Assembly: GCF_900143265.1 (NCBI RefSeq)
Contig: NZ_FRDJ01000013.1
Location: 1 to 45,325 of the forward strand
Direction: 5' to 3'
DNA length: 45,325 nucleotides
Source of the DNA: Fervidobacterium gondwanense DSM 13020
GTDB taxonomy: Bacteria > Thermotogota > Thermotogae > Thermotogales > Fervidobacteriaceae
The notes below the pieces were generated by a model, which saw only the letters and a program-made list of their open reading frames with translations, had not been told where the DNA came from and searched no databases. The translations under genes were made by a program, and so were the position numbers. This document shows positions 1 to 21,006 of this stretch, piece by piece. The number at the start of each line of letters is the position of its first letter. The stretch's first letter is position 1.

Positions 1-452
<452 letters not shown>

Positions 453-16938: not shown

Positions 16939-18762
16939 CTATTGTGCTACGTTTGGATAATATACGAGAATTAGACTGAGTTTGTTATTCCAAACATCTG
17001 ATGTCCAACCTTTATCAGATAATATGGACTGAACGTTCTCTGGATATGCGTCCACATCTGAGAATGTGTATAAAATGATTGTGAAGACATACCCTTCGTC
17101 AAAGATAAGCGTTTTCATTTCCACATTTTCGGGAATGTAGTCAATATATCCATATTCGTAGAGCGTGTCCAAGTCAACCTCCTGAATACCCTCGTAGCCC
17201 AAAAAGTCAAAGACCGCGTATGAAATTTTATCAAGCTCGTCTGCTATCTCATATTCAACATCACTATACTCTCCCCATTCTACTTCCTCTGTTGTTTCTT
17301 CATAGTATTCTTCCTCATATTCTTCGGAATAGTCTTCCCACTCTTCTTCATATTCTTCCTCGAATTCATCGTACTCTTCTTCATAATATTCGTCATATTC
17401 CTCTTCATATTCTTCCCAATCTTCCTCGTAGTCATAATACTCGTATTCTTCTTCATACGACTCTTCAGCTTTCTCCATTAAGTATTCTAAAAGGAGCATC
17501 GGATTAGTGAAATCACACGATACTAATGTGTTTCCGTTCTGAAGCGTGGTAATTGTAAATTCCAGATAACTGCCTAATTCATCAACTTGAACATTCACCC
17601 TGAAATACAAGTGTGAGTCATTTGTAAAAACACCGAGCTCCGTACTATTATCCAGTTCCTGTGACGATAACAGTGCGATCTTCTTATCCTGAAGAAGTTT
17701 ATAACTCAAACCATTTCTTTTGAGAAGTTCAAGTATAAGCCTAATGTCTTTCTCATACTCGGGAATATATTTTACGGAAAATAAGAATCCTTCTTCCGAA
17801 ATTGAGCCAAAAACTGACTCAACGGAATCCAAAAAACCTTCGAGTGCCTTTACAAACCGCTCCTCATCACCCGCAATCTCCTCCAAAAGACCAAACATCA
17901 GTATTTGTTTAACATTTTCCAGCACATCGAGACGAAAACCAAATGTGTAAGGTGAGTCTTTAACAAAATAGTGCCCTTTTAACGCTCCTATTCTTGAAAG
18001 TGCCAACTTTCGTTCGTACTCTACATAGGATTTGCTTACTGATAGTTCAAAATGATATTCATCTCCGCTCTTCCTAAGAAAAGCCTCCTCTGAACTCGGC
18101 GTACCGTAAAAATCTATAAATTGGTACAGGAGATCTCCAACAGGTGAAAATTTCAAAGCTTTATAGTAGAACACGTAATCATCTTTTGTGGATACGGAAT
18201 AAATATGAACTTTAGCATCAAGCATTGCCTTTGTTGACTGTGCAATATAGTTGTTGAAGCAAACGTATATGTTTGTATTTGAGCGAATAACGTACAACTT
18301 ACCAAAAGTCCCAACGGGCACTTCGTAAAGCGTGTTTTTCACAAACTGTGTTATAGATAAACGTGCATTTGAAAGTAGCGACAAAATAGAGATGAGTGTT
18401 TTATCACCAATTTCGCCAGGCAACACCAAACCTAATGGTAAACCGCTCAAAATATCAAGAAAACCGTCTTCAAAATTTTCAAAATCTTCTTCTAAGAGTA
18501 GCGCCAACTTAAATAACTGACCAGGTCCACCCAGAGAGTTTTTTCCATAAATCCCTAGGATTTTAGGAATTCCCAGCTCGTCGAATATCTTTACTATGTC
18601 TATAAATTCTCCTTCAACTTCATCTGTAATCAACTGTTCGAAATTAAAATACATCACGTAGTCGCTGTTTCCTGGTACATTCAGTGTAATGCCATAAACT
18701 GAGACTGATATCAGGAATAAGACCGCAAGTAGTGCTACATTCACTTTGGAAATGTTAAACAT
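16939..18762 (-). CDS. Secreted DUF3352-like protein with a Glu/Tyr-rich tract
   Basis: About 607 residues. A signal peptide is clear (VALLAVLFLISVSVYG, about 8-23), so it is exported. The mature part starts LNVPGNSDYVMYFNFEQL, similar in plan to DUF3352-like proteins and to the protein at 26503-27750 (hydrophobic leader, then a D-Y-x-M/V-x-Y strand and repeated large/small structural blocks). Around residues 427-500 there is an extreme low-complexity stretch of Glu, Tyr, Asp and Trp (units like YEEEY, EEYDEYYEEEYDEFEEEY), followed by about 100 normal residues. Function unknown; a surface or metal-binding role is speculation. Start ATG 18762 follows GGGAGGT; an ATG 7 nt upstream is out of frame. 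The promoter lies against the right end of the IS605 element. Confidence 0.8.
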   Translation of the reverse strand: MFNISKVNVALLAVLFLISVSVYGITLNVPGNSDYVMYFNFEQLITDEVEGEFIDIVKIFDELGIPKILGIYGKNSLGGPGQLFKLALLLEEDFENFEDGFLDILSGLPLGLVLPGEIGDKTLISILSLLSNARLSITQFVKNTLYEVPVGTFGKLYVIRSNTNIYVCFNNYIAQSTKAMLDAKVHIYSVSTKDDYVFYYKALKFSPVGDLLYQFIDFYGTPSSEEAFLRKSGDEYHFELSVSKSYVEYERKLALSRIGALKGHYFVKDSPYTFGFRLDVLENVKQILMFGLLEEIAGDEERFVKALEGFLDSVESVFGSISEEGFLFSVKYIPEYEKDIRLILELLKRNGLSYKLLQDKKIALLSSQELDNSTELGVFTNDSHLYFRVNVQVDELGSYLEFTITTLQNGNTLVSCDFTNPMLLLEYLMEKAEESYEEEYEYYDYEEDWEEYEEEYDEYYEEEYDEFEEEYEEEWEDYSEEYEEEYYEETTEEVEWGEYSDVEYEIADELDKISYAVFDFLGYEGIQEVDLDTLYEYGYIDYIPENVEMKTLIFDEGYVFTIILYTFSDVDAYPENVQSILSDKGWTSDVWNNKLSLILVYYPNVAQ

Positions 18763-18829
18763 ACAGCATACCTCCCTTCTCCAACCCAAGGAAGAAAAGA
18801 AAAAACCGCCTTAACATCCGTGTAAAATA

Positions 18830-18838
18830 ATTATATCA
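18830..18838 (-). promoter_or_regulatory. Extended -10 promoter of the Glu/Tyr-tract gene
   Basis: Minus strand TGATATAAT (18838-18830). It begins 5 bp outside the IS605 right end (18843), so any -35 contact would be with IS sequence. Confidence 0.6.
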
Positions 18839-18842
18839 TATT

Positions 18843-19010
18843 GTGAACTACCCATTACTAAAGTCACAGGCTTCCTGCTTCATCGACCGGACTTGCTGCA
18901 GTGTTACTTGACAGTAGAGGCCCAGCCTCCACAGGCATGGACTTTCGTCCTCGGGTCGTCCCAGCCCTACCAAAGATTCGGTTATCACGTTATCCCGAGT
19001 TGCAACAGCC
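18843..19010 (-). ncRNA. Candidate omega RNA (reRNA) of TnpB
   Basis: In IS605 elements the tnpB 3' end plus right end encodes the guide RNA scaffold, ending at the element boundary, with the flanking DNA as guide. Here, after the tnpB stop (18985), the minus strand shows a GGAC-GAAA-GTCC hairpin (18950-18939), a GAGGC-TGG-GCCTC hairpin (18929-18917) and the imperfect end hairpin near 18850-18870. The guide would start right after position 18843 and read AATATGATATAATTATTTTA. The upstream limit is a guess. Confidence 0.6.
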
Positions 19011-20202
19011 CTTGTCTTAATATATTCTTCGCTGCGTTTTCATCCCTATCATGTTCCATTCCACACTTTGGACATTTCCATGTCCTTACACTTAGTTCTT
19101 TTACTCCCTCATTCTTGTGTCCACACTTGCTGCAAATCTGTGATGACGGAAAACTTGGTGATACCTGCAAGAATACTCGTCCATACCGTTCTGCTTTGTT
19201 TCTTACCATCTCTACAAACTTTGACCATGATACATCATGAATACTCTTTGTTAGATGACTATTCCGTACAAGATTCTTAACTCTCAAATCTTCGCAGATA
19301 ATTGCTTGGTTTTCGCTAACTACCTGCGAAGATAACTTTTCCAGAAAGTCCTTCCTGATATTTGTTACTCTTTCATGCATTCTTGCAAGCTTTATTCTTA
19401 TCTTCTCAAAGTTCTTGCTTCCTTTCACCTTCCTTGCAAGCTCTCTTTGTAACTTCTTTATTCTCTTTTCATATCTTGCAAGAATCTTTGGATTCTCAAT
19501 ATGCTTTCCTTGACTGTCTACATAGAGATCTTTAACTCCTAAGTCTAAAGCTATTGCGAAATTTTGTGGCGTTTCACTAATTCTACGATTGTACACTTTC
19601 TCTTGTTCTACTGTAATTGATACATAGTACCTCCCGCTTGGGGTTAGTGTTACGGTTGCACTTTTGATTCTGCCATCGAAAGTTCTATGGATTCGTGCTT
19701 TTACCCAACCGAGTTTCGGAAGCTTTATCTTCCCCCAGCAACGGCTTTTGTCTGGATTTATTATTATCTCACCAAAATCGACTTGTATATTGTTATTCGT
19801 AGAGTTCGTCGTATACGAAAACCGATGTGATTTCTTTGTCTTGAATTTTGGACATCTTGCTTGTTTTTTGAAAAATATTTTGTAAGCATTGTCAAGATTT
19901 ATCAAAGCATTTTCGAGAGCAAACTTATCTACTTCCCTAAGCCATGGATATTGCTCTTTTAAAACACTGTTCAAATGCTTTCGACACTCAGGTTCAGTGG
20001 TCGAAAGCTTTTCTTCTTTGTATCTTTGCTCTCTCCAAGCAAGGAAGTAATTCCAAACAAATCTTACACAACCAAATGTCTTGGCTAACAGTGTTTTTTG
20101 TTTTTCATTTGGATAGAGCCTGTATCGATAGGTGACTATAATACTAAACTTGCTCCTTTTGAGAATTGATGTATTTCTTGATTTGCTCTTCAGTATTTTC
20201 AC
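18985..20202 (-). CDS. tnpB: TnpB, RNA-guided nuclease of IS200/IS605 (OrfB)
   Basis: 405 residues as drawn. TnpB is the RuvC-type, omega-RNA-guided endonuclease that helps IS605 copies persist. All active-site parts are present: D220 in ALDLGVKDL, E304 in ICEDLRVKNL and D387 in HDRDENAAKN; the zinc ribbon has C357, C360, C377 and C380. The N-terminal YRYRLYPNEKQ motif starts the recognised homology at about residue 25. The start is doubtful: the only canonical in-frame start is GTG 20202, inside the tnpA remnant and without a ribosome site, while AAAAGGAG sits just before the homologous part, where the suitably spaced codon is ATT (20142). So the natural start is either AUU or lost. Otherwise the reading frame is intact. 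Confidence 0.93.
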   Translation of the reverse strand: MKILKSKSRNTSILKRSKFSIIVTYRYRLYPNEKQKTLLAKTFGCVRFVWNYFLAWREQRYKEEKLSTTEPECRKHLNSVLKEQYPWLREVDKFALENALINLDNAYKIFFKKQARCPKFKTKKSHRFSYTTNSTNNNIQVDFGEIIINPDKSRCWGKIKLPKLGWVKARIHRTFDGRIKSATVTLTPSGRYYVSITVEQEKVYNRRISETPQNFAIALDLGVKDLYVDSQGKHIENPKILARYEKRIKKLQRELARKVKGSKNFEKIRIKLARMHERVTNIRKDFLEKLSSQVVSENQAIICEDLRVKNLVRNSHLTKSIHDVSWSKFVEMVRNKAERYGRVFLQVSPSFPSSQICSKCGHKNEGVKELSVRTWKCPKCGMEHDRDENAAKNILRQGLLQLGIT

Positions 20203-20375
20203 TCACCGTAGCAACAAAATATGACGGGTTTCCCTGTTCTTTTGCAATTTCCTGTAATATTTTTTAGGTCTGTTTCTATTTCACCTTGAAGAATTCTGTG
20301 TATGTACTTTACGCACCACACTATATGATATTGAAGGGAATATACGTACCCTCTTTTGTGACCAATTATAGGCAT
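20144..20375 (-). pseudogene. tnpA: IS200/IS605 TnpA remnant (internal deletion plus frameshift)
   Basis: The N-terminal Y1 transposase segment GHKRGYVYSLQYHIVWCVKY...LQGEIETDLKNI reads from ATG 20375. Near 20256-20262 the frame shifts, and the continuation LQEIAKEQGNPSYFVATVSE then NTEEQIKKYINSQKEQV runs to TAG 20144. Family members are about 130-150 residues and have a U-x-H-x-H (HUH) metal motif in the middle. Here the middle, with the HUH motif, is absent; the join is at the G-N-P-S-Y region. The helix with the catalytic Tyr (KKYIN) remains. It cannot be active. No ribosome site precedes the start. Confidence 0.85.
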
Positions 20376-20514
20376 TTTGTTTGCCCATCTAAGGTGTGTT
20401 ATGATTCTACACATATTATACAATAGCAAAATCAAGTCTTCATCTATTCTGTGCTCAAAGGTATAACAAATATAATGATATTATCTCTTACTCCTGCCTA
20501 AAGACACGAGAGTG
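20376..20514. other. Intergenic, presumed IS605 left end
   Basis: A+T-rich sequence between the tnpA remnant and the stop of the YkgJ-type gene. It should contain the element's left end, whose hairpin I cannot place with confidence. No gene is seen. Confidence 0.4.
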
Positions 20515-20973
20515 TTAATTCTCTTCAACTTCTATTGCCGCATCCATTAAGATGTCGTAATACTCCTTCCACCTTCTTGCCACAGTTTGCCTCGTGTATC
20601 CTTGTGGATCACACCTCTCGTCCACTTTTGGTACCAACATTCTACAGCTTTCTGGTCTTTTCTCAAACTCGAGCTCACATCCGTGCGGGGTTAAAAACGT
20701 ACATTCCCCAAGATAATTATGATCAAAAACGCTTCCTTCAAATCCTTTCACTGCTGGGCGAACAAAGTACAACCCCTCGTCTTGGTTGATCCAATCGATA
20801 GTCCACATTCCTGTCGATAAAGCTTCGATAAGGTTCGTTCGCAATTTTTCAATATCTGGTGCACCGAAATCCTCCGGCGTTGCTGGACCAGGGTAAGTCT
20901 TACAACACTTCCCACCACAACTTTTACAAATTGCCAAGTTCTCTACACCAATTGGTTTAATGTTTGAATTCAT
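20515..20973 (-). CDS. YkgJ-family Cys-cluster protein (putative Zn/Fe-chelating domain)
   Basis: 152 residues. The family signature C-x2-C-x3-C-C is at C16, C19, C23 and C24 (CKSCGGKCC), and the second cluster is GECTFLTPHGCEL and RPESCR in the middle. Proteins of this family (formerly UPF0153) are thought to bind zinc or an iron-sulfur cluster; biochemical roles are mostly unknown. Start ATG 20973 follows GAGGAG; a GTG three codons earlier overlaps that site. It is divergent from the MetH reactivation gene, with 76 bp between. Its 3' end abuts the IS605 left flank. Confidence 0.88.
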   Translation of the reverse strand: MNSNIKPIGVENLAICKSCGGKCCKTYPGPATPEDFGAPDIEKLRTNLIEALSTGMWTIDWINQDEGLYFVRPAVKGFEGSVFDHNYLGECTFLTPHGCELEFEKRPESCRMLVPKVDERCDPQGYTRQTVARRWKEYYDILMDAAIEVEEN

Positions 20974-21006
20974 AGCCCACACTCCTCACAGAATTGTTTT
21001 TAATTA

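What the first reader, a model, noticed from the sequence alone, without database searches (positions are those of the whole stretch)
18843..20460. IS605 element whose TnpA is destroyed but whose TnpB is almost intact
TnpA has lost its central HUH part by an internal deletion and has a frameshift, while TnpB keeps all RuvC residues, its zinc ribbon and an omega-RNA-like end. TnpB genes kept without TnpA are interesting as possibly domesticated RNA-guided nucleases, or as copies in early decay.
Basis: partly seen in the sequence, partly recalled or inferred. Interest (0 to 1): 0.6.

Follow-up and report, generated by a model that had tools for sequence, protein, structure and literature searches.

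The report
Recently immobilised IS605 element with tnpB
A common kind of bacterial jumping gene has lost its mobility enzyme through two separate mutations while its RNA-guided nuclease gene still looks nearly whole, which points to early decay rather than to a gene adopted by the host.

Summary
It lies 3' of TTGAA in the last codons of a neighbouring gene, without target duplication; the joined flanks give a C-terminus like those of orthologues. TnpA has two separate lesions relative to an intact sibling in a congener: a 2-nt frameshift (about 20256) and a 171-nt in-frame deletion that removes the HUH motif (20230/20231). No other Y1 transposase was found in the genome. TnpB keeps an open 405-codon frame, D220/E304/D387 and its zinc ribbon, but where 16 of 16 readable homologues have ATG, GTG or TTG it has ATT, so translation may be weak. 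The right end keeps a covarying guide-RNA scaffold. The tnpA remnant shows no excess amino-acid divergence, so the lesions look recent. In the congener one of four copies has intact tnpA, and two tnpA-less copies share one deletion at unrelated sites, so such derivatives moved in trans. A published survey already files tnpB elements with tnpA remnants as IS605 decay products. Ordinary.

The parts
20524..20528 (-). TTGAA target pentamer (inferred TAM), host sequence
   Evidence: Precedes the left end in the window and in all 4 G001 copies; same letters in the orthologous gene of G003
20504..20523 (-). Left end; first base 20523; short palindrome ACAC-TCTC-GTGT at 20504-20515
   Evidence: Alignment with 4 G001 copies; first 38 bp matched at 82-84%
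20144..20354 (-). tnpA remnant (from RGYVYS to stop TAG); -2 frameshift about 20256, 171-nt in-frame deletion at 20230/20231 removing the HUH motif; tyrosine motif NPSYF kept
18985..20202 (-). tnpB open frame, 405 codons from GTG; position equivalent to the homologues' start codon is ATT at 20140-20142 (385 codons from there)
18843..18970 (-). Right end / guide-RNA scaffold; overlaps no more than the very 3' end region downstream of tnpB; terminal hairpin 18850-18871; element ends GTTCAC at 18843
18827..18842 (-). Inferred 16-nt guide (host flank AATATGATATAATTAT)
   Evidence: Adjacent to the right end; guide length by analogy with ISDra2 (PMC8612924 passages)
20515..20982 (-). Host gene entered by the insertion; its last codons and stop come from the left end
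   Evidence: C-termini of 8 orthologues

Best explanation
An ISDra2-like IS200/IS605 element inserted 3' of TTGAA in the tail of a host gene by the usual single-strand peel-and-paste route and then lost tnpA (frameshift plus HUH deletion). It is now immobile in this genome, which shows no other Y1 transposase. tnpB and the guide-RNA end persist mainly because little time has passed; the tnpB start position is already ATT. If TnpB is still made, it should bind the right-end RNA and cut only the element-free allele (TTGAA plus flank), a target absent from this genome. Shown by sequence: boundaries, lesions, motifs, covariation. Inferred: TAM role, guide, cleavage, weak translation, recency, and that the loss came after insertion.
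For: Exact ends and restored host C-terminus; two tnpA lesions against an intact sibling; no other Y1 match in the genome; tnpA remnant not more diverged from outgroups than intact TnpA; ISDra2-like TnpB with all catalytic and zinc residues; ATT start position; scaffold pairs 96.5% kept with 6 double changes; sibling copies with other tnpA deletions, a stop or an internal tnpB deletion.
Against: The tnpA loss cannot be dated relative to insertion; a tnpA-less arrival in trans is possible. tnpB has no stop or frameshift at all. The draft genome has 26 contigs, so a missed TnpA is possible. ATT initiation was not tested. Window-lineage acceleration of tnpB is only a hint (9 v 2, p 0.065; not significant over all columns).
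Confidence: 0.82

Rival explanations
1. A tnpB-only, non-autonomous element that arrived already lacking tnpA, moved in trans by another copy's TnpA that is absent from this genome now.
For: In G001 copies C and D share one tnpA deletion, homology starts at TTGAA and flanks differ, so a tnpA-less form transposed.
Against: No second copy with this tnpA deletion was found in G000 and no helper TnpA. No copy with the window's lesions was seen in G001.
Confidence: 0.12
2. TnpB retained by selection as a TnpA-free homing nuclease that maintains this insertion by cutting empty alleles.
For: Catalytic residues intact; target plus flank would rebuild exactly the empty site. In plasmids the reported drive depended on the RuvC domain of TnpB and not on TnpA (PMC11870625, passages).
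Against: ATT start position, no expression or population data, open frame expected without selection for a short time.
Confidence: 0.05
3. Domesticated TnpB (host regulator such as TldR, or defence).
For: ORF open; the inferred guide overlaps a -10-like box in front of the next gene.
Against: That overlap is a by-product of where the element landed, and the occupied site no longer has TTGAA next to the guide target. RuvC is intact, unlike TldR (recalled). No TTGAA-bearing match to the guide elsewhere in G000 at up to 3 mismatches.
Confidence: 0.01

Closest known systems
ISDra2 (IS200/IS605 family, Deinococcus radiodurans)
   Same: Overlapping tnpA-tnpB order, right-end guide RNA, insertion 3' of a TTGA(T/A) pentamer without duplication, TnpB alignable over its length (PMC8612924 passages)
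   Different: tnpA inactivated; TTGAA instead of TTGAT; tnpB start position ATT
Sibling copies A-D in the congener G001
   Same: Same family: about 68-69% protein identity, TTGAA, TTCAC end, shared scaffold
   Different: A has intact tnpA; B and C/D carry other tnpA deletions; C has a stop and D an internal deletion in tnpB
tnpB-only IS1341-type elements / 'decays of IS605' (PMC9956272 passages)
   Same: tnpB with both ends and no working Y1 gene; Y1 remnant above 20 bp is that paper's criterion for an IS605 decay product
   Different: By that criterion it is excluded from true IS1341
RAGATH-18 RNA (Rfam RF03064)
   Same: Aligns at the core of the scaffold (18872-18935) with CCUGUGGAG...GAUGAAGCAGGAA
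   Different: 24.2 bits against a cut-off of 44.9; no hit in the G001 copies

Membership tests
IS200/IS605 family element | Insertion 3' of a fixed short target without target duplication | tested here: met
   TTGAA before 5 of 5 left ends; joined flanks match orthologous C-termini
IS200/IS605 family element | Working Y1 HUH transposase TnpA | tested here: not met
   HUH motif deleted, frameshift; so a decayed member, not an autonomous one
IS200/IS605 family element | TnpB with split RuvC and zinc ribbon | tested here: met
IS200/IS605 family element | Guide RNA made from the right end | tested here: inconclusive
   Scaffold conserved with covariation, but the window strand alone folds no better than shuffles (z 0.04); expression not testable
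Active RNA-guided nuclease | TAM-dependent cleavage by the native locus | not testable with these tools
   Needs an assay; ATT start position is a warning
IS1341 (tnpB-only) as defined in PMC9956272 | No Y1-derived sequence above 20 bp next to tnpB | tested here: not met
   Y1 remnant of about 70 readable codons
TldR-type domesticated TnpB | Inactivated RuvC (recalled) | tested here: not met
   D220, E304, D387 present
RAGATH-18 RNA | Score over the family's gathering cut-off | tested here: not met
   24.2 v 44.9 bits

The most novel reading that the evidence does not exclude
TnpB without any TnpA persists as a selfish homing nuclease that keeps this insertion in the population by cutting element-free alleles, perhaps at a low dose set by the ATT or the upstream GTG start.
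Probability: 0.05. Interest if true: 0.45.

Novelty: new member of a known kind. Interest (0 to 1): 0.15.

Why it matters
It is a clean small example of how tnpB-only elements arise: an intact sibling, distinct tnpA deletions in other copies, and a tnpA-less form that moved in trans, all within one genus. It also supplies a TTGAA-target relative of ISDra2 TnpB. It does not change what is known about TnpB.

Tried and rejected
dN/dS of the window tnpB against its siblings could not be used: synonymous sites are saturated (pS 0.78-0.80). dN/dS against other copies in the same genome was impossible: the only other tnpB there is 31% identical. A count of private substitutions that ignores how isolated each sequence is (window 9, isolated L080 12, others 0-3) was replaced by relative-rate counts. 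Viral contigs gave one hit at 32% identity, not used. Genome contigs gave only L004, a 4.2-kb contig with a partial tnpB, 72% identity over residues 111-306, not used as a sibling because it is truncated. DNA folding of the ends gave nothing beyond shuffles. The promoter scan did not report the -10-like box in the minus-strand flank. Searching 'Fervidobacterium' with 'TnpB' found 0 papers; that genus name is my guess from recall and no call names the organism. No structure prediction was run because sequence similarity to solved TnpB was strong.

Rows dropped: 4 of 20 homologous loci had no readable tnpB 5' end (L096, L084, L090, L091), and several of the 16 read are close copies of each other; searches used 8 of these loci as outgroups; one search left copy D out of the pairwise counts because of its internal deletion; L006 and L028 are the same TnpA. 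For the RNA alignments I used 12 and then 6 of the loci, because the more distant right ends did not align well.

Full report
What is there. On the minus strand lies a complete insertion of the IS200/IS605 type. Alignment with four copies of the same family in an unnamed congener (G001; copies A in L049, B in L048, C in L050, D in L051) fixes both ends: homology begins right after TTGAA (20524-20528) and ends with GTTCAC at 18843. The element is 18843-20523, 1681 bp. All five left ends follow TTGAA.

The insertion site. The gene at 20515-20982 runs into the left end. Its orthologues in eight congeners end differently; G003 reads gaagttgaaaatagtcaatga, and G002 and G004 end DVENSNF. Joining the window's own flanks gives gaa gtt gaa aat atg ata taa, EVENMI-stop, which fits that pattern. 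So the element entered the last codons of this gene without duplicating the target, and the gene's present last residues and stop come from the left end. The two genes that flank the element are 15-64 kb apart in the four single-contig congeners where both were found (G001-G004), so there is no syntenic empty site to read directly; the reconstruction rests on the coding match.

tnpA. Pfam Y1_Tnp matches only its positions 2-37 here. Against A's intact tnpA there are two lesions: loss of 2 nt in the KNI/LQEI region (about 20256), and an in-frame loss of 171 nt (57 codons) that removes the DHVH motif and everything up to the NPSYF tyrosine motif, with the junction at 20230/20231; net loss 173 nt. 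No other Y1 match was found in G000, a 26-contig draft with an estimated completeness of 99.35%.

tnpB. The frame is open for 405 codons from a GTG at 20202, with OrfB_IS605, HTH_OrfB_IS605 and TNB domains over their cut-offs, and aligns with ISDra2 TnpB (8h1j) over residues 26-404, E 1.4e-85. D220, E304, D387 and the CxxC pairs at 357-360 and 377-380 are present. The codon at which homologues begin is TTG in the four G001 copies, ATG in 11 and GTG in 1 of the others (16 of 16 readable); in the window it is ATT (20140-20142), still preceded by AAAAGGAG. ATT is a rare start codon (recalled), and the upstream GTG has no good ribosome site by my reading, so translation is probably weak. That is inference.

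Guide-RNA end. The right end (18843-18970) aligns with those of A-D and of more distant homologues. A 41-pair consensus over 6 sequences is formed in 96.5% of cells; 6 pairs change on both sides (reached by 3 of 500 shuffles), and sliding the partners by 1-3 columns drops pairing to 28-50%. The window breaks three of these pairs (columns 7/15, 63/74 and 113/122, the last in the terminal hairpin). Against this, the window strand alone folds no better than its shuffles (z 0.04, while A is -3.36 and B -3.72). RAGATH-18 aligns at the right place but far below its cut-off, and not in the G001 copies.

How old is the damage? In the tnpA remnant the window matches outgroup TnpAs as well as intact A does (22 v 20 of 70; 26 v 26 of 69; 23 v 23 of 63; 21 v 22 of 70) and has changed 0 of 12 outgroup-invariant sites. 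pN is 0.215 in the remnant and 0.187 in tnpB, both against copy A. So the lesions look recent relative to the split from the G001 copies. For tnpB, 9 window-only against 2 A-only changes at 87 outgroup-invariant columns hint at faster change (p 0.065), but counts over all columns with each of 8 outgroups are not significant (lowest p 0.174). About 5.1% of random substitutions in this frame make a stop, so the absence of stops is unremarkable up to about 0.05 neutral substitutions per site. The open frame is therefore no evidence of selection since tnpA was lost.

The family pattern. In G001 only A has intact tnpA. B has lost most of tnpA but keeps tnpB open from its TTG; the two TAGs that one search counted in it do not occur between the TTG and the end of the 390 codons read. 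C and D share one tnpA deletion and lie at unrelated sites, with homology starting at TTGAA; C has one stop in tnpB and D an internal deletion. So tnpA loss has recurred in this family, and a tnpA-less form has moved in trans. The window's lesions are a further, different event.

Guide and target. By analogy with ISDra2 (TAM TTGAT; last 16 nt of the RNA from the flank; PMC8612924, passages), TnpB here would cut TTGAA followed by AATATGATATAATTAT. No TTGAA-bearing match with up to 3 mismatches exists in G000; its three pattern hits are the element's own flank without TTGAA and two other sites without it. The guide overlaps a TGaTATAAT box ahead of the 16939-18789 gene; the TATAATTA..TTACA stretch recurs upstream of its relatives in G002 and G004, so the insertion abuts that gene's probable promoter. 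This follows from where the element landed and is no evidence of regulation.

Known kind. PMC9956272 (passages) treats tnpB elements with Y1 remnants above 20 bp as decays of IS605; this element fits. Domestication has no positive evidence. A TnpB-only homing role (compare PMC11870625, passages) is not excluded.

Noticed in passing
L002 (G000:C1:271819-275484), ORF at 1054-2277 of the locus: The only other tnpB of the genome (31% identical, open frame 408 codons) also has no Y1 transposase nearby: the single Y1 match of the genome is the remnant in this window.
   Followed up: partly
window 18830-18842: The right end abuts a TGaTATAAT box; the -10-like stretch is shared with relatives of the downstream gene, so the insertion replaced whatever lay at its -35.
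   Followed up: partly
window 16939-18789: A 616-aa protein with a long acidic, tyrosine-rich stretch (EEYEEEYDEYYEEEYDEFEEEYEEEW); relatives in G001, G002 and G004 are only about 40% identical although other genes here are far closer.
   Followed up: no
window 1-452: The contig begins inside a small-subunit ribosomal RNA gene on the minus strand; ORFs listed there are spurious.
   Followed up: no
L051 and L050 (G001 copies D and C): tnpA-less copies with the same deletion at unrelated sites show movement in trans; D also has an in-frame internal deletion in tnpB.
   Followed up: yes
L004 1-757: A 4.2-kb contig labelled Bathyarchaeota holds a truncated tnpB 72% identical to the window's, beside phage-like genes; transfer or a binning error.
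   Followed up: no
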